Positions 24,296 through 61,615 of a stretch of DNA of 61,615 nucleotides are shown one piece after another. The notes under the pieces are model-generated. The model worked only from the letters and a program-made list of their open reading frames with translations. It was not told where the DNA came from and ran no database searches. The stretch comes from Spirirestis rafaelensis WJT71-NPBG6 (GTDB lineage Bacteria; Cyanobacteriota; Cyanobacteriia; Cyanobacteriales; Nostocaceae): positions 1 through 61,615 of the forward strand of contig JAHHID010000041.1 of the NCBI GenBank assembly GCA_019359015.1, given 5' to 3'. Position 1 is the first letter of the stretch. The number at the start of each line of letters is the position of its first letter. The translations under genes were made by a program, and so were the position numbers.

Positions 24296-27200
24296 TTATT
24301 TGCTTCCTGGTAATTGCTGCGATTGCTGCCTCGGCTCTAACACAGGTTTGAACGGCTTGATGCTCTCAATGTCCACACAGTTGGTTCCATCCAGCTTGGT
24401 TCTGAGTTGAGCGCTGAAGGTGACTAGCGTCTCGACAAGAACCTCACGGTCAGTTAAGCAGCCTTTGATTGCCATGAGTTCGCCTAAAGTCCACTCATAA
24501 AGTTGTCTGTCTGCATTGTTGATGAGTACAGTCAATTCGCTCTTGGTTCTTATGATTTGGTTGAGAAGCTCATCCACCTTGATGTTGATGATATTCGCGA
24601 CCCGCGTGTTGAATGTGTCTCTATCGCCTATTATGTTGATCACTTCATCAACGTACTGTCTTACCAGACTTATGAATGTCTGATTCCACTCGTTGCGGAC
24701 GCTCGAAATCTTGATGTCAACATCTCTGTAGACGTTATTAATCTTGTTGTTAATTTCAGTACTATTAACAACCAAGTTGACAATCTCGTTGTTCACTTCA
24801 GTGTTGTTGGTTACAGTCTGCTGTAAGCGCTGGTCGATGTACTGATTTAATCCCTCATTGTTATTGACAATGTTTTGGGTAATCAGATGCAAGTTATTTC
24901 GTACCTTTTGCTCATAAGTGTTGTCAATTTGCTGGCTGACGTAGTTATTAAGCTCAGTATTGTTATTGACAAACTTCTGAGTGATGAGTGTGTTGAATGT
25001 GTCTGTGCCACCGATGATGTTGCTCAGTTCATCCACGTGCTGTGTAGCTAGATTGATGAATGTCCGATTCCACTCGTTGCGGAGGTTCTCAATCTTGTTA
25101 TTAATTTCAGTACTGTTGGCAACAACATTGACAATTTCGTTGTTCACTTCAGTGTTGTTGGTTACAGTCTGCTGTAAGCGTCGGTCGATGTACTGATTCA
25201 ATTCCTCATTGTTATTGACAATGTTCTGAGTAATCAGATGCAAGTTATTTTGTATTTTCCGCTCATAAGTGTTGTCAATTTGCTGGCTGACGTAGTTATT
25301 AAGCTCAGTATTGTTATTGACAAACTTCTGAGTGATGAGTGTGTTGAATGTGTCTGTGCCACCGATGATGTTGCTCAGTTCATCCACGTGCTGTGTAGCC
25401 AGATTGATGAATGTCTGATTCCACTCGTTGCGGAGGTTTGAAATCTTGTTGTTAATTTCAGTACTGTTGGCAACCAAGTTCACAATCTGGTTGTTAACTT
25501 CAGTGTTGTTGGTGACACTGTGCTGTAAGCGCTGGTCAATGTAGTTATTAAGCTCAGTATTATTGTTGACCAGCTTCTGAGTAATAACTGTGTTGAATGT
25601 GTCTGTGCCACCGATGATGTTGCTCAGTTCATTGACATGCTCTGTAGCCAGATTGATGAATGTCTGATTCCACTCGTTGCGGAGGTTTGAAATCTTGTTG
25701 TTAATTTCAGTACTGTTGGCAACCAAGTTCACAATCTGGTTGTTAACTTCAGTGTTGTTGGTGACACTGTGCTGTAAGCGCTGGTCAATGTAGTTATTAA
25801 GCTCAGTATTATTGTTGACCAGCTTCTGAGTAATAACTGTGTTGAATGTGTCTGTGCCACCGATAATGTTGCTCAACTCATCCACGTGCTGTGTAGCCAG
25901 ATTGATGAATGTCTGATTCCACTCGTTGCGGAGGTTTGAAATCTTGTTGTTAATTTCAGTACTGTTAGCAACGACGTTGACAATCTGGTTGTTCACTTCA
26001 TTGTTGTTGGTTACAGTCTGCTGTAAGCGCTGGTCGATGTAGTGGTTTAATTCCTCATTGTTATTGACAATGTTCTGAGTAATCAGATGCAAGTTATTTT
26101 GTACCTTTTGCTCATAGCTGCTGTCAATTTGCTGGCTGACGTAGTTATTAAGCTCAGTATTGTTATTGACAAGCTTCTGAGTGATAACCGTATTGAATGT
26201 ATCTGTGCCACCGATGATGTTGCTCAGTTCATCGACATGCTGTGTAGCCAGATTGATGAATGTCTGATTCCACTCGTTGCGGAGGTTAGAAATCTTGTTG
26301 TTAATTTCAGTGCTGTTGGCAACCAAGTTCACAATCTGGTTGTTAACTTCAGTGTTGTTGGTGACACTGTGCTGTAAACGCTGGTCGAAGTATTGGTTTA
26401 ATCCCTCATTGTTATTCACAATGTTTTGGGTAATCACTGGAATGTGATTTTGGATCTTTTGCTCATAGGTGCTGTCAATTTGCTGACTGACGTAGTTATC
26501 AAGGTCAGTATTGTTATTGACAATATTCTGAGTAATTAAGTTGATGTTATTGCGTACCTTCTGCTCTAAAGAGGAGTCGATTTGCTGATCGACATGCCGA
26601 TCAATGTGCTGGTTAAGTTCCTGCTTATTTACAAGGTTGTTGATAATTAATTCGACGTTGTTACGTATCTTTTGCTCGAAGGAGGAGTCGATTTGCTGAT
26701 CGACATGCCGATCAATGTACTGGTTGAGTTCCTGCTTACGTACAACGTTGTTGACAATTAACCCGATATTGTTACGTATCTTTTGGTCAAAGATTTGGTC
26801 GATTTGCTGATCGACATGCTGATCAATGTACTGGTTGATTTCTGGCTTATTTACAACGTTGTTAACAATTAATCCGATGTTGTTACGTATTCTTTGCTCA
26901 AAGGTTTGGTCAACGTACTGGTTGATCTGCTGGTTAATTTTCTTGGATATCTCAACGTTGATCTTATCTTCGACAAGTTTGTCTAAGTAGCTAGACCAGC
27001 TTTGTAATTGCTGGTTCAGGCTAAACTCCATCTGCTCTTGATAGGCATCCATTGTAAACCTGACTTTTGCCACTTCTACAGCCAGGCTTTTGAAGTGCTT
27101 CTCGTAGTTTTTCAGGAGCCACTGTTCGAGCTGATCCCAATACTTAGCCTCTAGTGTGACATCGTTTTGATCAATTACATTGATAGATGCATTAATCTGC

Positions 27201-29821
27201 TGTAACTGCTCCTCCCACTTTTTCTTGAAGTCGTCTTCGTTGAAGCGGAAGGTGAACTCTGTCGAACTGTTCGCACTTACTGGTTGACGATCGCCAGATC
27301 CACCTGTACCTTGAATATTTGTCACAGACTCTGTGGAGCTGTTCGCACCCGCTGTTTCACGACTGACAGATCCACTGCCTTGAATATTGGTAACAGTGCT
27401 TGTAACAGTCCTGGTTGTAGTCGTCTGTTGTTGGCTCTCTCCTTTGACGTTATTATTCTCTTGCTTTTTATACTTATCAGCAAGTTCAGTTGCACTCACT
27501 GGCTCTATTGCCAGAATAATTTGTCCTTCATTATCTTCCTTGTAGGTGTCAAAAAATAAACCTGTCAAGGTAGTTTTTTCTTTGACCTCTAAAACGATTT
27601 CATCTTTCAGACCATTCAATGAAGTCCAAGTTTCTTCAACTTCAATGCCAGTCAGTTTTGTAACAAATTTTCCGCCTTTGACCCAAATTAAAGCCCAAGG
27701 TTCTAAATCAAACTTCTTGTTATCTGACCAATATGTTGCATTACCTTCACGAATTTTGATGCGATAGTTTCCTGGATTTAATTCAATGAAGTTAGCACCT
27801 GATTGTTTCAAACTTGACAGGTGATTTTCATCCAGCACATAACAATTACGTTTGCTGTCTACTGTTAAAGTCTGAGGGTTGAAAAATGGTTTATTGCTGG
27901 TAATTGAAAGATTAATTGAGCCATTATTATCAGTATTGTTTACATCAAAGAACAAGGCACAGACAACTGTTCTATCTTTGACTTCTAACTGCAAATGGTC
28001 ATTATATCCGTTTAAAGTTGTCCAGGTTGCCCCTACCTCATAACCTGTGGTTTTATCTATAAATTTACTACCATCAACTCCATATATCCAGAGCAAGACA
28101 AAAGGTTCTCCTTCTGTTTTCGCTTTGGCATATCTGTAGCGACCGCTAGCAATTTTGATATCAAAAGTACCTTTCTCTAAGGTAAAAGAACTTGCAACAT
28201 TTTGTTGCAGGTTGTTCATTTGGTTGGGGTCGATAACGTAACAATTGTTTTTGGTATCAATGGTTAAAATGCTCATACCTTCACTATTGATAGTTTTGCT
28301 TTCTTGAGAAACTACTGCTGGTATACCTTGAGAACTTTTTTCTTTTTCTACTGTTGCTGATATACCTTGAGAACTTTTTTCTTCTTTTGTTGTTTCAGAT
28401 TTTTCGTCTGAGTTGGCTTCTGGGGTAATTTGCGTTGTTACTACCGTAGCTGGTTCATAAATACTAATCCCTGCCCAACGACTCTTAGGTTCGGTCATCG
28501 TGACTAAAGTTCCCTTACCAGTAGTCGTGTTAATGCGGATTAGTTGACCGTCTTTACCTAAGTTAAAGAAGTTACCAGTTACGCCATAGAGAACATTACC
28601 AACAAATTCCATACTGGCAATATTGGGAAAGCCTGTATCACCAATGATTTGGACTTTACTAGCCTCTAGATCCCAACTTACTAATAACTTCTTCTTGTTG
28701 TAACCAATCAAGGTAATATAAGCTTTGCCATCAGCATCAAAGGCAACTTCAGCACAGTTGTAGTCTTTATCCGCTACAGTTACTACTGGCGTACCTTTAC
28801 CTGTTTCGAGATTAATGGCAACCAGTTGTTTAGCTGTTGTGGCGTAGAGCGTTTGACGCTGGCGATTATATGCTAAACCAGCTGCGGCAAAGCCAATATC
28901 ACCAACTACGGTGGCATCACCTGAATTCAGGTTAATTTTAACTAGGTCAGTCTTGTCACCGTTTCTATCAAGTCCATATAGTTGCGAACCGACAAAAGCA
29001 ATGTCAGAAACTTCTGTAACTATCTCGCCAATAAAACTAGCTTTACCTGTGACTAAATCCAGGGTGTAAAGTTTGCTTAATTCATTGGAGACGCAATCTT
29101 GGACATAAACTGCCCCTGGTTTGAGCTTAATAGTTTTAGCTGTGCGACTGCCACAGATAACTTTTTCTAAAACTCCACTGAAACCACTGATAGCGTCTTT
29201 ATTTGTAAAAGATTGTCCACCAGTTGAAGTTGCAAGTCTGGCGTATTCGGTTTTGATACCTTCTTGATGCTTGCTTTTTGAAGTTCCAAAATAGGTGTGA
29301 ACGGTAACTCCTGCTGCTTGGGCTTTTTGGATAGCCAAGTTAGCTGCTTTAACATCCTCTTGCTCTGTTTTATCTCCACCTCCTTCGAGTGCTTCATCAC
29401 CGAGATAAAAAATAGCTCGTGCTGCACCTTCGCGCCAATCAAAGTAATCTGATATATCTTCAATTGCGCGAGCTGCATCTTCTTGCGCTCCTGCGTCTGC
29501 AACTTGTCCTTTTTTTCTACCCCGGAGTTGGGATTCTGACACTTTACATTTTTGAGTCAGATAAGCTCGGATACTTTGGTCGAAGTTTGTCCCTTTCCAA
29601 GTACCTTCTACACCCAACCAAGCCACTCTTAAGTCTGATGGACAACTAGATTTAGCTTTGGCGATCGCACCAGCAGCAGCATTACTCAAAGCCTGTGCTT
29701 CATCTTTCATCGAAGGACTAGTATCGATGACGATGACTAAATCAACAGGAGGTATAGTGCTTGCTTGATTACTCATGCTTTGTTCTTTTTTCTTTTTCTG
29801 GTTGAAACCGAATAATTTCAT
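24296..29821 (-). CDS. Giant vWA / beta-propeller / modular fibre protein
   Basis: A protein of 1841 residues, not matched to a known function. (1) A von Willebrand A domain (about 25-225) has the metal site DTSPS (Asp33, Ser35, Ser37). (2) At about 235-460, repeated strands such as YTLDLVTGKASFIG and VKINLNSGDATVVG suggest a beta-propeller. (3) Two copies of an unrecognised beta domain begin NCYVIDPNQ (about 525) and NCYVLDENH (about 657). (4) A Ser/Thr-rich linker and an amphipathic region (about 855-955). (5) A repeat array (about 957-1740). (6) A C-terminal helical domain. No signal peptide or membrane segment is visible. The start may be Met16 (MSNQASTIPP). The gene stands alone before a long noncoding region. 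Confidence 0.9.
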   Translation of the reverse strand: MKLFGFNQKKKKEQSMSNQASTIPPVDLVIVIDTSPSMKDEAQALSNAAAGAIAKAKSSCPSDLRVAWLGVEGTWKGTNFDQSIRAYLTQKCKVSESQLRGRKKGQVADAGAQEDAARAIEDISDYFDWREGAARAIFYLGDEALEGGGDKTEQEDVKAANLAIQKAQAAGVTVHTYFGTSKSKHQEGIKTEYARLATSTGGQSFTNKDAISGFSGVLEKVICGSRTAKTIKLKPGAVYVQDCVSNELSKLYTLDLVTGKASFIGEIVTEVSDIAFVGSQLYGLDRNGDKTDLVKINLNSGDATVVGDIGFAAAGLAYNRQRQTLYATTAKQLVAINLETGKGTPVVTVADKDYNCAEVAFDADGKAYITLIGYNKKKLLVSWDLEASKVQIIGDTGFPNIASMEFVGNVLYGVTGNFFNLGKDGQLIRINTTTGKGTLVTMTEPKSRWAGISIYEPATVVTTQITPEANSDEKSETTKEEKSSQGISATVEKEKSSQGIPAVVSQESKTINSEGMSILTIDTKNNCYVIDPNQMNNLQQNVASSFTLEKGTFDIKIASGRYRYAKAKTEGEPFVLLWIYGVDGSKFIDKTTGYEVGATWTTLNGYNDHLQLEVKDRTVVCALFFDVNNTDNNGSINLSITSNKPFFNPQTLTVDSKRNCYVLDENHLSSLKQSGANFIELNPGNYRIKIREGNATYWSDNKKFDLEPWALIWVKGGKFVTKLTGIEVEETWTSLNGLKDEIVLEVKEKTTLTGLFFDTYKEDNEGQIILAIEPVSATELADKYKKQENNNVKGESQQQTTTTRTVTSTVTNIQGSGSVSRETAGANSSTESVTNIQGTGGSGDRQPVSANSSTEFTFRFNEDDFKKKWEEQLQQINASINVIDQNDVTLEAKYWDQLEQWLLKNYEKHFKSLAVEVAKVRFTMDAYQEQMEFSLNQQLQSWSSYLDKLVEDKINVEISKKINQQINQYVDQTFEQRIRNNIGLIVNNVVNKPEINQYIDQHVDQQIDQIFDQKIRNNIGLIVNNVVRKQELNQYIDRHVDQQIDSSFEQKIRNNVELIINNLVNKQELNQHIDRHVDQQIDSSLEQKVRNNINLITQNIVNNNTDLDNYVSQQIDSTYEQKIQNHIPVITQNIVNNNEGLNQYFDQRLQHSVTNNTEVNNQIVNLVANSTEINNKISNLRNEWNQTFINLATQHVDELSNIIGGTDTFNTVITQKLVNNNTELNNYVSQQIDSSYEQKVQNNLHLITQNIVNNNEELNHYIDQRLQQTVTNNNEVNNQIVNVVANSTEINNKISNLRNEWNQTFINLATQHVDELSNIIGGTDTFNTVITQKLVNNNTELNNYIDQRLQHSVTNNTEVNNQIVNLVANSTEINNKISNLRNEWNQTFINLATEHVNELSNIIGGTDTFNTVITQKLVNNNTELNNYIDQRLQHSVTNNTEVNNQIVNLVANSTEINNKISNLRNEWNQTFINLATQHVDELSNIIGGTDTFNTLITQKFVNNNTELNNYVSQQIDNTYERKIQNNLHLITQNIVNNNEELNQYIDRRLQQTVTNNTEVNNEIVNVVANSTEINNKIENLRNEWNRTFINLATQHVDELSNIIGGTDTFNTLITQKFVNNNTELNNYVSQQIDNTYEQKVRNNLHLITQNIVNNNEGLNQYIDQRLQQTVTNNTEVNNEIVNLVVNSTEINNKINNVYRDVDIKISSVRNEWNQTFISLVRQYVDEVINIIGDRDTFNTRVANIINIKVDELLNQIIRTKSELTVLINNADRQLYEWTLGELMAIKGCLTDREVLVETLVTFSAQLRTKLDGTNCVDIESIKPFKPVLEPRQQSQQLPGSK
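24607..26930 (-). repeat. In-gene array of 111-, 102- and 249-bp modules
   Basis: Within the vWA gene, modules occur at exact codon-multiple spacing. Units of 111 bp (37 residues, INQYIDQHVDQQID type) recur at 26579, 26690 and 26801. The TGTTGAATGT landmark recurs at 24607, 24991, 25342, 25591, 25840 and 26191 (TATTGAATGT at the last), giving steps of 384, 351, 249, 249 and 351 bp. A 351-bp step is one 249-bp unit (83 residues) plus one 102-bp unit (34 residues). The 384-bp step adds 11 residues. The two consecutive 249-bp units are nearly identical in DNA, indicating recent duplication. Confidence 0.95.
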
Positions 29822-30916
29822 ACACTTCCCGCTTGAACTTCATAGGCAGACTGAGTTTGGTAGCTAAGGGCAAATGCATTGGCAAAAATCTTGGAGCATA
29901 ATTCCCAGCTTGTTTGCGGGAAGCTCCAAACTATGCACATACACATGAATGCATGCGCTTTGCGCTTAGAGAAAATTCTCCTTCGTGCATGTGCCGTGCA
30001 GACTTTCAATGTGAACGCGAGTGCGTGCGCCTTAGCATAGGCAAACCTATACATTTGGGATGCTCCCGTTAAATTTTTACTCAAATGTATAAATTCCCAG
30101 CATTTGCATGATTTTATTTGGGGGGACGCATTAATATTTACAAAACGCGCAACCCTACAACAAATCAAACAGGATTTTGAGAACTTTTCCAAATAAACTC
30201 CTTGATTTGAGGCATTTCATGATTAATTCGCGAGGAAAAAACGAATACTAGCGCCCAGTATTGTGCGTTTTTTACAGGTTTCTTTCACGGAATGTAAGAA
30301 ATCCTTGACCAAGTTTTTAGATGAAAAGAAAACGATATTTCTAGAAGTACATTAATGAGTTTTATACTAGCATAAAATCTATCTATAGACTTAATTGATA
30401 AGAATCTATAAATATGTCAATAAATAAGAAAGGGATAAAATTGCTTAAACTTAATCTGTGCATATATTCTAGGAAATTGCCAATTAACTGCTAGCGAGAT
30501 TTTATTTCTTTTTAGTACACATGGACTGCAACCTTGTTTACTAAAGTTTAAAGTTGTCAATTTATCGATTATGCGTTTGGCTTTGGTAGGCGTATCTTCC
30601 GACAATATCTTCGCTGCGGGCTTGCACGTGCGACTTTGTAGCGCCTTTCTGTTGTGGGGTCGCAGGAAAATTAATCAAACGATAAATTCTAAAAATTCTG
30701 ATTATGAGCGTTTATACATCAACTTGAGTTGATGCTAAAACTATTTTGCGCGAAGACCAACAAATCATTTTAATTTTGCGATCATGCTTTGTAGATTTTG
30801 GTTTCTAATTGTTAGTTTTTAGGCAAATGTAACCGCTTATATTATGTCATAGTTTTTTTAAAACATCTAATCATATTTTTATATCAGCCATCTATAATTT
30901 ATCAAATTCCACTTAT
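29822..30916. other. Long gene-poor AT-rich spacer
   Basis: No convincing gene on either strand. Frames of 62-124 codons here are Cys/aromatic-rich without recognisable features. The part nearest the vWA gene is presumably its promoter and leader; no ribosome site or promoter stands out. Confidence 0.5.
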
Positions 30917-31042
30917 TTGTCAAGGACAGCTAAGACACTTAAGAAATTAATTTTCTCATTAGTGGACAATTAAGACAATTTGTCAAGGACAGTTAAGACA
31001 CTTAAGGAATTAATTTTTTCATCAGTGGACAGTTAAGACAGA
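30917..31042. repeat. 63-bp tandem duplication with four GGACARYTAAGACA motifs
   Basis: Two 63-bp units (starting 30917 and 30980) differ at few positions. Each holds two copies of a 14-bp motif, so GGACARYTAAGACA occurs at 30924, 30964, 30987 and 31027 (spacing 40, 23, 40). The regular array of GACA-containing sites resembles transposase-binding repeats at Tn7/Tn5053-type transposon ends. No transposase gene is in the window. Confidence 0.7.
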
Positions 31043-32295: not shown

Positions 32296-32637
32296 TGCAA
32301 TATCCCGTTTGCTTGCTGAATCTACCCAAATGAGTGCGTGATCTACCGAAATGAGAAACCGATCAAGCATTTTGAGTAAGCAATATGCCTTTTTGCTTGC
32401 TGAATCTACCCAAATGAGTGCGTGATTTACCGAAATGAGAAACCGATCAAGCATTTTGAGTAAGCAATATGTCTTTTTGCTTGCTGAATCTACCCAAATG
32501 AGTGCGTGATTTACCGAAATGAGAAACCGATCAAGCATTTTGAGTAAGCAATATGTCTTTTTGCTTGCTGAATCTACCCAAATGAGAAAGCATTTAAGGC
32601 AAATGAGTAAGCAATATGCCTTTTTGCTTATTGAAAT
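32296..32637. repeat. 84-bp tandem repeat, about four units
   Basis: The landmark GCTTGCTGAATCTACCC recurs at 32311, 32395, 32479 and 32563, exactly 84 bp apart. Units include CCGAAATGAG, AAACCGATCAAGC and TTTTGAGTAAGC. Because 84 is a multiple of three, both strands show repeated 28-residue frames, but these have no start context or known domain. The last unit is degenerate. Confidence 0.9.
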
Positions 32638-37777: not shown

Positions 37778-38686
37778 TTATGGAATAGGAACAATTCGCA
37801 ATAACCGCTCCATCACAGTTCTTGCCCTGCGTCCTCCCCCTGGAATCAGGCGATGACAAAGAACATAAGGAGCAAGAAATTTCACATCATCGGGAATGGC
37901 GTAATCACGCCCTAACAGAAAAGCTAACGCCTGAGTAGCCCGTTGCAGAGCCATTGTACCGCGAGGACTTACACCAAGAGAGATTTCCTCATCTTGTCGT
38001 GTTGCCCGCACCAATTCCAAAATATAGCGTTGCAATGAGCTTTCCACTCTTACCTGAGCGCAAATTTGGCGTAATTCCTGCACCTCTGCCAAAGTAATAC
38101 AAGGTTGCAAATCAGCAACTTTGATATTTTTATCGGCGCTTTGCAGCATCTGTAATTCTTCTGCTTGAGAAGGATAGCCCAAACTCAAAGAAAGCATAAA
38201 CCTATCCATCTGCGCTTCTGGCAACGGAAAAGTGCCTTGGTATTCGATGGGGTTTTGAGTCGCAATCACAAAAAAGGGTGTAGGAACAGCACGAGAAACA
38301 CCATCTACAGTTACCTGCTGCTCTTCCATAACTTCCAGCAAAGCTGACTGAGTGCGGGGTGTAGCACGGTTGATTTCATCAGCTAGCACCACATTGGCAA
38401 ATATTGGACCAGGAAGAAAGCTAAATTCGCCGCTTTTCGGGTTCCAAATATTGATACCAGTAATGTCACTAGGTAGTAAATCTGGGGTGCATTGTAGGCG
38501 TTGAAATTTGCCATCAATAGAACGAGCTAGAGACTTGGCAAGCAGGGTTTTGCCTACACCAGGGACATCTTCTAATAAAGCGTGACCACCACCTAGCAAA
38601 GCAACTAGCACTAAGCGTATTGCCTCACTTTTGCCAACGATAGTAAGAGCCAGATTTTGTGTTAGCGCGTCAATTTTTTTTCTCAT
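37778..38686 (-). CDS. MoxR-family AAA+ ATPase
   Basis: A 302-residue chaperone-like ATPase of the MoxR class, which helps assemble or activate metal-dependent or membrane enzyme complexes, often with vWA-domain partners. It has Walker A EDVPGVGKTLLA (39-50), Walker B VVLADEINRATP, sensor FVIATQNPIEYQGTFPLPEAQMDRF and the C-terminal lid with SPRGTMALQRATQALAFLLGRDYAIPDD. The usual neighbours (DUF58, vWA proteins) are absent; the nearest vWA protein is about 8 kb away and not in an operon with it. Confidence 0.95.
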   Translation of the reverse strand: MRKKIDALTQNLALTIVGKSEAIRLVLVALLGGGHALLEDVPGVGKTLLAKSLARSIDGKFQRLQCTPDLLPSDITGINIWNPKSGEFSFLPGPIFANVVLADEINRATPRTQSALLEVMEEQQVTVDGVSRAVPTPFFVIATQNPIEYQGTFPLPEAQMDRFMLSLSLGYPSQAEELQMLQSADKNIKVADLQPCITLAEVQELRQICAQVRVESSLQRYILELVRATRQDEEISLGVSPRGTMALQRATQALAFLLGRDYAIPDDVKFLAPYVLCHRLIPGGGRRARTVMERLLRIVPIP

Positions 38687-61283: not shown

Positions 61284-61615
61284 TCATGTGCTTGGTTTGA
61301 CTGGAGGTGGTGTTGGGTTTGGATTCGGATTTGGGTTTGGATTCGGATTTGGGTTTGGATTCGGATTTGGGTTTGGATTCGGATTTGGGTTTGGATTCGG
61401 ATTTGGGTTTGGATTCGGATTTGGGTTTGGATTCGGATTTGGGCTGGGATTCGGATCTGGCTTGGGTTGTGGCTGTGTAGGAACGATTGGATCTGGCTTG
61501 GGTTGTGGCTGTGTAGGAACGATTGGATCTGGCTTGGGTTGTGGCTGTGTAGGAACGATTGGATCTGGCTTGGGTTGTGGCTGTGTAGGAACGATTGGAT
61601 CTGGCTTGGGTTGTG
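61284..61615 (-). CDS. C-terminal end of a Pro-rich repeat protein (partial)
   Basis: The minus strand is open from the right edge to TGA at 61284-61286, about 110 codons, with no start in the window. It encodes four or so repeats of the 12-residue unit PQPKPDPIVPTQ (36 bp in DNA), then about 17 Asn-Pro repeats (18-bp unit in DNA), and ends NPTPPPVKPST. It is probably a flexible Pro-rich tail or cell-wall-spanning region of a surface or exported protein. Its folded part lies beyond the window. Confidence 0.75.
   Translation of the reverse strand, partial: QPKPDPIVPTQPQPKPDPIVPTQPQPKPDPIVPTQPQPKPDPIVPTQPQPKPDPNPSPNPNPNPNPNPNPNPNPNPNPNPNPNPNPNPNPNPNPNPNPNPTPPPVKPST

What the first reader, a model, noticed from the sequence alone, without database searches (positions are those of the whole stretch)
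24296..29821. 1841-residue vWA-propeller-fibre protein with strictly modular repeats
Seen: an MIDAS-type vWA domain at the N-terminus, then propeller-like repeats, two unknown beta domains, and about 780 residues of array built from three fixed-length modules. From N to C the array is four 37-residue units, then 34, 83, 34, 83, 83, 83, 34, 83, 34 and a divergent long unit, each beginning L/I-N-x-Y/H. No signal peptide, membrane helix or anchor is visible. Inference: the array could form an extended Asn/Gln-rich coiled fibre or oligomerisation stalk with the vWA and propeller as binding heads, working inside the cell or exported by an unrecognised route. I do not know a described family with this architecture.
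Basis: partly seen in the sequence, partly recalled or inferred. Interest (0 to 1): 0.82.

Follow-up and report, generated by a model that had tools for sequence, protein, structure and literature searches.

The report
Modular cyanobacterial membrane-side rod protein
A very long cyanobacterial protein, with a probable metal-binding head, a propeller, two copies of one unknown domain and a helical rod of repeated modules, belongs to a patchy and apparently undescribed family that probably works on the inner face of the cell membrane, and in some relatives it sits beside enzymes that break down and oxidise lipids.

Summary
The gene is on the minus strand (29821 to 24296, 1841 aa). The array is real (identity 0.43 at lag 117; best of 200 shuffles 0.14) and the family recurs, with different array lengths, in many separately sequenced cyanobacteria. 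The two "unknown beta domains" are tandem copies of one ~125-aa domain (45% identical), also found alone. A conserved 77-aa C-terminal cap was missed. Core: domain-domain-stalk-array-cap; propeller and vWA are optional heads.

Export is not supported: no signal peptide or TM helix is seen in core proteins with intact N-termini, and anchored paralogues next door (11 of 48 core-type loci) run signal peptide, periplasmic part, TM, mostly Arg-rich turn, same kind of stalk and cap, which predicts a cytoplasmic stalk.

In 8 of 48 loci a lipase, a cyclooxygenase-like peroxidase and (7 of 8) a catalase-related gene follow on the same strand; these are the three most recurrent neighbour families. In the window's genome that cluster lies on another contig.

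Best reading: a membrane-side cytoplasmic oligomeric scaffold (0.45); a role in lipid oxidation is a weaker inference. No matching family turned up in Pfam, NCBIfam, PDB sequences or the papers searched.

The parts
24296..29821 (-). whole gene, 1841 aa
   Evidence: the only match of the protein in its own genome
29774..29821 (-). N-terminal aromatic and polybasic tail (aa 1-16, MKLFGFNQKKKKEQSM), possible membrane-association motif
   Evidence: similar tails in the vWA forms and many propeller forms, including Xenococcus and Pleurocapsa; absent from five Microcoleaceae propeller forms (L111, L112, L116-L118) and from most bd-only forms; membrane binding is inference
29129..29758 (-). vWA-like domain (aa 22-231)
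   Evidence: DTSPS and GDEALE in 18 of 18 aligned; Pfam VWA_4 18.4 bits (cut-off 27), VWA 15.2 bits (cut-off 23.8); model pLDDT blocks 47-83
28418..29125 (-). beta-propeller, five blades by strand count (aa 233-468)
   Evidence: DUF6923 45.3 bits (cut-off 27), DUF4394 43.1 bits (cut-off 29.6); pLDDT blocks 78-93; Foldseek hits are propellers, many of them Kelch domains
27902..28267 (-). bd1: first copy of a ~125-aa beta domain of unknown family (aa 519-640)
   Evidence: pLDDT blocks mostly 79-94; no PDB sequence or Pfam family above cut-off
27506..27868 (-). bd2: second copy of the same domain (aa 652-772), 45% identical to bd1
27242..27457 (-). Thr/Ser/Gly/Gln-rich linker (aa 789-860), predicted disordered
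   Evidence: pLDDT under 50; 72-bp imperfect tandem repeat inside it
26927..27211 (-). conserved helical stalk start, 'Nstalk' (aa 871-965)
   Evidence: helical, pLDDT blocks about 36-56
24599..26950 (-). modular array: 37,37,37,38,34,83,34,83,83,83,34,83,34 and the start of the long unit (aa 958-1741)
   Evidence: helix predicted at low confidence (which covered aa 1224-1841)
24344..24574 (-). C-terminal cap domain 'Ct' (aa 1750-1826); 18 residues, including two Cys, invariant in 10 aligned sequences

Best explanation
The protein is the soluble member of a cyanobacterial family of cytoplasmic scaffold proteins. SHOWN: a conserved core (bd-bd-stalk-array-cap), optional propeller and vWA heads, arrays whose number and type of units differ between lineages, and, in part of the family, a neighbouring paralogue with N-terminal signal-like segment, a second hydrophobic segment, usually a basic turn, a stalk of the same kind and the same cap. 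INFERRED: stalk and cap oligomerise into an elongated helical assembly; the heads (metal-dependent vWA, propeller, bd pair) bind partners; the assembly sits at the inner face of the plasma membrane through its basic/aromatic N-terminal tail and, where present, the anchored paralogue. WEAKER INFERENCE: in part of the family its clients or regulated partners are lipid-hydrolysing and lipid-oxidising enzymes (lipase, cyclooxygenase-like dioxygenase, catalase-related lyase), so that it could localise or switch an oxylipin-forming pathway in response to a signal.
For: Family and architecture. In 41 core ORFs (40 in named loci and the window) the only hydrophobic 19-residue stretches above 1.6 are at residue 3 of L086 and L087, whose vWA is mostly missing. 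Anchored paralogue downstream in 11 of 48 core-type named loci (L069-L074, L089, L090, L094, L102, and a 97-aa fragment in L079); in the ten full ones a 19-residue segment of mean hydropathy 1.49-2.86 is followed by basic residues, Arg-rich in nine and KMSK in L102. A PBP_like_2 domain lies in front in L074, L089, L090, L094 and in the companion-only locus L092 (blastp; Pfam E 8e-32, 6e-30 and 8e-33 in the three scanned). Fusion: the second gene of L084 runs signal-like segment, TM, TPR repeats, propeller, start of a bd. Neighbours: of 367 flank ORFs of 120 aa or more around 48 core-type loci, the three most recurrent families are the Tle1-like lipase (8 loci), the An_peroxidase (8) and the catalase-related protein (7), every one downstream on the same strand.
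Against: 37 of 48 core-type loci show no cap-bearing companion next door (45 of the 48 have at least 1.2 kb after the core), and the window's own genome shows no second cap (one match, 14 of 43 first-look candidates scored; one, 13 of 13 scored). In two Rhizonema genomes and one Scytonema bin (L089, L090, L094) the companion has the 31-aa stalk type and a cap 71-72% like that of the distant L102 core but 33-37% like its own core, against register-matched co-coiling. The lipid genes are absent next to 37 or more of the 48 loci; the window's genome has them on another contig (C8), and two same-genus genomes, G001 (99% complete) and G003 (54% complete), have a DOX gene without a core match. In one unnamed relative (L037) the cluster lies upstream of the core, not downstream. 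Co-occurrence in 39 relatives is weak (4 both, 4 core only, 3 DOX only, 28 neither; Fisher P 0.022, not corrected for kinship), and the eight linked loci are all from one clade of the order. The array model has pLDDT 40, so no coiled coil or oligomer is shown.
Confidence: 0.45

Rival explanations
1. Exported or cell-surface fibre/adhesin: vWA and propeller heads on a stalk, secreted by an unrecognised route.
For: vWA, propeller, repeat stalk and variable array length are common in adhesins (established knowledge, no call).
Against: No signal peptide or anchor seen in core proteins with intact N-termini; companions place the same kind of stalk and the cap on the predicted cytoplasmic side of a TM helix.
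Confidence: 0.1
2. A vWA/MoxR-type chaperone or conflict (immune) system: the vWA-propeller protein is the co-chaperone and the stalk a superstructure-forming scaffold.
For: PMC7159879 (passages seen) describes vWA proteins with a C-terminal propeller, scaffolding or coiled-coil modules, and a third component with TM, TPR and propeller; L084 has a TM-TPR-propeller-bd protein. The MoxR-like ORF 8 kb from the gene in the window passes Pfam's bpMoxR cut-off (37.5 vs 27 bits), although it scores far higher in the general family AAA_3 (212 bits). Six loci have an upstream, divergent AAA-like ORF of one family, four of them also a pentapeptide-repeat ORF.
Against: The window's MoxR ORF finds no relative (E<=1e-6) in the flanks of the 50 named loci examined, and no MoxR-like family is among those recurring at 4 or more loci; the vWA head is optional (full in 14 of 40 core proteins); the paper reports its propeller systems mostly outside cyanobacteria.
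Confidence: 0.15
3. A transmembrane sensor pathway: the PBP_like_2 (PstS-like) periplasmic domain senses a solute and signals through stalk and cap to the soluble vWA/propeller protein.
For: PBP_like_2-TM-stalk-cap genes (L074, L089, L090, L092, L094) and the PBP_like_2-TM-DUF4912-bd gene right after core and stand-alone bd in L076.
Against: Other companions have only a low-complexity periplasmic part (L069-L073, L102; and, for L069 and L073, their copies); many genomes, including the window's, show no companion.
Confidence: 0.15
4. Repeat expansion without function, or an assembly artefact of the array.
For: Repeats are easily mis-assembled; the core genes of L070, L071, L081 and L105 are broken into separate ORFs.
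Confidence: 0.03

Closest known systems
vWA-MoxR propeller-containing ternary systems (PMC7159879, passages seen)
   Same: vWA with a C-terminal propeller; scaffolding modules; a TM-TPR-propeller partner type (seen here in one locus, L084)
   Different: no linked MoxR at the named loci; cyanobacterial; vWA optional; a bd-bd-stalk-cap core is not described in the passages seen
Cyanobacterial coiled-coil-rich filament-forming proteins (PMC7002697, passages seen)
   Same: long helical proteins of cyanobacteria with possible cytoskeletal or scaffold roles
   Different: the candidates tested there are about 280-650 aa; its main text has no occurrence of 'von Willebrand' or 'beta-propeller'; no homology test was run against them
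DUF4394 / DUF6923 propeller proteins (Pfam)
   Same: the propeller passes both gathering cut-offs
   Different: the full architecture is not part of those models; the exported-looking propeller protein of L045 is only 28-34% identical in parts
Nostoc punctiforme linoleate 10S-dioxygenase and catalase-related 10S-hydroperoxide lyase (Brash 2014, seen only as a reference title in PMC9579011; that paper itself is not held)
   Same: the neighbouring An_peroxidase and catalase-related genes are of the same family names, side by side
   Different: they are neighbours, not the protein itself; their activity here is untested and their identity to the N. punctiforme enzymes was not computed

Membership tests
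vWA domain superfamily | MIDAS motif (DxSxS ... T ... D) | tested here: inconclusive
   DTSPS and an Asp in GDEALE invariant in 18 of 18; the motif-2 Thr could not be assigned, GAQED stands in that region; motif recalled, not from a call
vWA domain superfamily | Pfam gathering cut-off | tested here: not met
   VWA_4 18.4 vs 27 bits; VWA 15.2 vs 23.8 bits, the latter spanning residues 6-188 of 210
DUF6923 / DUF4394 propeller | Pfam gathering cut-off | tested here: met
   45.3 vs 27 and 43.1 vs 29.6 bits for the excised domain; not reported when the whole protein was scanned
vWA-MoxR ternary conflict systems | linked MoxR ATPase | tested here: not met
   in the window a MoxR-like ORF lies 8 kb away and passes bpMoxR (37.5 vs 27 bits), but it has no relative in the flanks of 50 named loci
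vWA-MoxR ternary conflict systems | vWA with C-terminal propeller | tested here: met
Known coiled-coil / intermediate-filament-like families | profile match of the array | tested here: not met
   Pfam, NCBIfam and PHROGs matches in the array have no stretch that passes on its own and name unrelated families (two of them above Pfam's whole-protein cut-off: Vps23_core, Pterin_4a); no PDB sequence match in the array
Coiled coil | heptad or hendecad hydrophobic periodicity and oligomer | tested here: inconclusive
   hydrophobic period 3.88 in the L106 array; 4.87 and 3.64 in the window array; pLDDT 40; oligomer state not testable here
LecA/PA-IL-like calcium lectin (considered for bd from memory) | profile match to solved structures or Pfam | tested here: not met
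   no PDB sequence hit at E<=10 or, with the larger alignment, E<=1; no Pfam family above cut-off; the listed Foldseek hits could not be assigned to bd, so the fold is unclassified
Trimeric autotransporter adhesin | signal peptide and C-terminal membrane anchor | tested here: not met
   no signal peptide seen, no hydrophobic anchor; the C-terminal domain is modelled as helical at low confidence

The most novel reading that the evidence does not exclude
A cyanobacterial lipid-stress 'signalosome': a metal-regulated, membrane-docked cytoplasmic fibre, coupled in some lineages to a periplasmic PstS-like receptor, that gathers lipase, cyclooxygenase-like dioxygenase and hydroperoxide lyase so that membrane damage triggers a burst of oxylipins, a wound response in multicellular bacteria.
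Probability: 0.12. Interest if true: 0.85.

Novelty: new variant of a known kind. Interest (0 to 1): 0.5.

Why it matters
No Pfam or NCBIfam model and no PDB sequence covers the bd domain, the stalk or the cap, and the listings of eight searches of the held library, with passages of four papers, showed no description of this architecture. The family is a natural experiment in modular rods (31, 34, 37 and 83-aa units) with interchangeable heads and membrane anchors, and it offers a testable link between a scaffold and lipid oxidation in multicellular cyanobacteria.

Tried and rejected
Whole-protein Pfam hits in the array (Vps23_core and Pterin_4a above cut-off, GlnE and DUF2255 below) were rejected: no stretch passes on its own and they name unrelated families. 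A LecA-like lectin reading of bd (from memory) found no sequence support. The vWA-MoxR reading was tested by MoxR linkage: none at 50 named loci, but the window's own MoxR-like ORF passes the bpMoxR cut-off, so it is kept as a rival. Structure of the array: pLDDT 40, unusable beyond 'helical'. Foldseek against PDB and the viral library: the 50 rows shown in each could be read only for the propeller. Mobile elements: no phage record matched; one Nostoc sp. MS1 plasmid carries a copy in pieces. Phylum scans (386 evenly drawn genomes): cap in 7 (one weak, with stops inside), bd in 9 (two weak or fragmentary); not all first-look candidates were scored.

Limits of the counts. Of 51 named loci, 48 have a core-type cap ORF (in L069, L073, L094 and L095 only its end, at a contig edge; in L100 a 188-aa ORF), L092 and L096 have only a companion-type gene, and L115 gave no cap ORF of 90 aa. 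The tree used 40 core rows (39 named loci and the window), leaving out fragments and L081, whose first bd is truncated. In one search the 51 loci counted are 50 named ones and the window, whose strand was not turned (its MoxR, labelled downstream, lies upstream of the gene), and the query genes had been chosen because they were seen downstream, so its finding of none upstream is biased; one search repeats the question without chosen queries. One search counts related loci as separate. In the Fisher test genomes with only a single-domain match (G008, G022, G027) were counted as core-negative. TPR, MoxR and the L081 enzymes were named by Pfam only; the enzymes of the other linked loci are named by blastp similarity to scanned ones, and in L071 and L077 some are short ORFs.

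Full report
What is there. The gene runs on the minus strand, 29821 to 24296, 1841 aa, and gives a single match in its 7.07 Mb genome. From the N-terminus: an aromatic and polybasic tail, a vWA-like domain (22-231), a propeller (233-468), two copies of one beta domain (bd1 519-640, bd2 652-772), a disordered linker, a conserved helical stalk start (871-965), the array (958-1741, overlapping the end of the stalk start) and a conserved 77-aa cap (1750-1826). Its repetition is far beyond chance.

How the modules relate. The 34-aa unit aligns to the 37-aa unit with a four-residue deletion and a one-residue insertion; the 83-aa unit aligns as a 34-type unit with about 49 extra residues. Most core proteins outside one 21-row clade of the tree have arrays with lags of 31 or its multiples (L119 shows 65, L108 no clear lag), while that clade shows 34, 37, 80-83 and 117 among its leading lags. 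In the window the 83-aa units average 92% identity to each other; within L069, L074 and L072 they average 92, 92 and 84%, and against the window's 88, 83 and 81%. This suggests that units are copied and homogenised within lineages.

The family. A scan of GTDB species contigs with two peptide patterns from the cap returned 51 named loci, all cyanobacterial by record title (Scytonema, Tolypothrix, Brasilonema, Hassallia, Nostoc, Calothrix, Rhizonema, Rivularia, Pleurocapsa, Xenococcus, Hyella, Microcoleus, Lyngbya and others). Of 40 core proteins placed in a tree (39 named and the window), 14 have a full vWA and propeller, 16 a propeller without a full vWA, and 10 neither. These forms are interspersed: 9 changes are needed, against a mean of 18.9 for shuffled labels, so heads were lost or gained more than once. 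In 386 evenly drawn genomes of the phylum the cap matches in 7 and bd in 9, a few of these weak; in 39 relatives the whole protein finds a match in 11.

Where it works. In 41 core ORFs (40 named and the window) a hydropathy scan flags only residue 3 of L086 and L087, where the vWA is mostly missing; no signal-peptide predictor was run. Eleven of 48 core-type named loci have, within about 1.2 kb downstream, a second gene with the same cap, one of them only a 97-aa fragment. The ten full ones run signal-like N-terminus, periplasmic part (low complexity in six; PBP_like_2 in L074, L089, L090, L094), a hydrophobic 19-mer (mean 1.49-2.86), basic residues (Arg-rich in nine, KMSK in L102), stalk, cap. 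By the positive-inside rule (established knowledge) stalk and cap are cytoplasmic. In L084 a neighbouring gene joins signal-like segment, TM, many TPR repeats, propeller and the start of a bd in one chain, cut off by the end of the locus. In L076 the core is followed by a stand-alone bd and a PBP_like_2-TM-DUF4912-bd gene. The N-terminal aromatic/basic tail recurs in the vWA forms and many propeller forms; I infer peripheral membrane binding. Against tight co-assembly of the partners: in L089, L090 and L094 the companion belongs to the other stalk and cap type.

Neighbours. In 8 of 48 core-type loci (L069, L070, L071, L077, L079, L081, L084, L085) the core, or its companion, is followed on the same strand by a lipase (Tle1-like, or class 3 in L084), an animal-type haem peroxidase and, in 7 of them, a catalase-related gene. 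In an unprompted comparison of 367 flank ORFs (140 upstream, 227 downstream), the Tle1-like lipase (8 loci, including L108), the peroxidase (8) and the catalase-related protein (7) are the three most recurrent families, all downstream on the same strand; eight other families recur at 4 to 6 loci, among them an upstream divergent AAA-like ORF at 6 loci and several that simply reflect shared synteny in five Microcoleaceae. In Xenococcus (L108) a class 3 and a Tle1-like lipase follow; in one Pleurocapsa bin (L113) a PhoD-like phosphatase, a class 3 lipase and an EF-hand/arginase protein; in another (L101) a multicopper oxidase, a tyrosinase and a fragment 60% identical to the catalase-related protein. 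In one unnamed relative the cluster lies upstream of the core (L037). The window's closest relatives (L070, L071; support 95/94) have companion and cluster downstream, whereas the window's genome has the lipase-peroxidase-catalase cluster on contig 8, with no family member found in the 17.8 kb examined. Enzymes of these families from Nostoc punctiforme are titled linoleate 10S-dioxygenase and 10S-hydroperoxide lyase in a reference seen in PMC9579011; the original paper was not available. The link is a lead only: the cluster exists without the core (G001), the core is mostly found without the cluster, the linked loci are related, and the co-occurrence test is weak (P 0.022, not corrected for kinship).

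Mechanism. Most likely (0.45) a cytoplasmic, membrane-side oligomeric scaffold whose heads hold client proteins. Oligomerisation, membrane docking and clients are inferred. The model of aa 1224-1841 is helical but has pLDDT 40, so 'coiled coil' is not shown. The hydrophobic period of 3.88 in the L106 array is outside the usual heptad value and remains unexplained.

What it is not. No Pfam, NCBIfam, PHROGs or PDB sequence match covers bd, stalk, array or cap credibly. Adhesin-type export is unsupported. Membership in vWA-MoxR ternary systems fails on a linked MoxR at the named loci; a MoxR-like ORF 8 kb from the gene in the window itself does pass the bpMoxR cut-off, though it is a far better match to the general AAA_3 family, and the architecture is alike in having vWA, propeller and scaffold parts (PMC7159879, passages seen). 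Published cyanobacterial filament-forming coiled-coil proteins (PMC7002697, passages seen) share only the general character.

Noticed in passing
window 32308-32586: 84-bp tandem repeat, 3.3 copies, 98% matches, overlapping short ORFs on both strands, near a protein-kinase-like ORF.
   Followed up: no
window 30915-31040: 63-bp tandem repeat, two copies, in the stretch upstream of the gene.
   Followed up: no
window 61313-61615: 18-bp and 36-bp arrays at the very end of the window, cut off there.
   Followed up: no
window 37778-38686: MoxR-like ATPase ORF that passes Pfam's bpMoxR cut-off (37.5 vs 27 bits) but matches AAA_3 far better (212 bits); not found near the homologues.
   Followed up: partly
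L076 10958-14842: PBP_like_2-TM-five DUF4912-bd protein of 1294 aa: a second membrane system that shares the bd domain; PBP genes also sit beside stand-alone bd genes in L042 and L059.
   Followed up: partly
L071 10378-10710, L081 10395-10718, L085 10408-10731: Small 107-110-aa protein right after the core gene; the L081 one has a sub-threshold H-type lectin score (19.1 vs 24 bits).
   Followed up: partly
upstream flanks of L072, L075, L082, L083, L084, L119: Divergently transcribed AAA-like ORF (AAA_35 in L119 and in the related L032 gene) at six loci, with a pentapeptide-repeat ORF at four (L072, L082, L083, L084).
   Followed up: partly
L101 6534-12003: Multicopper oxidase and tyrosinase genes downstream of the Pleurocapsa core gene.
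   Followed up: partly
L070 271-3120 and relatives in L071, L076, L089, L094: Large ORFs with a TPS secretion domain (Pfam in L070) recur in the flanks of five loci, on either side.
   Followed up: no
L106 array (aa 421-715): Hydrophobic residues spaced mostly by four (period 3.88), unusual for coiled coils.
   Followed up: partly
L135 8415-10684: Nostoc sp. MS1 plasmid pNSMS103 carries a family member in pieces, annotated as hypothetical proteins.
   Followed up: no
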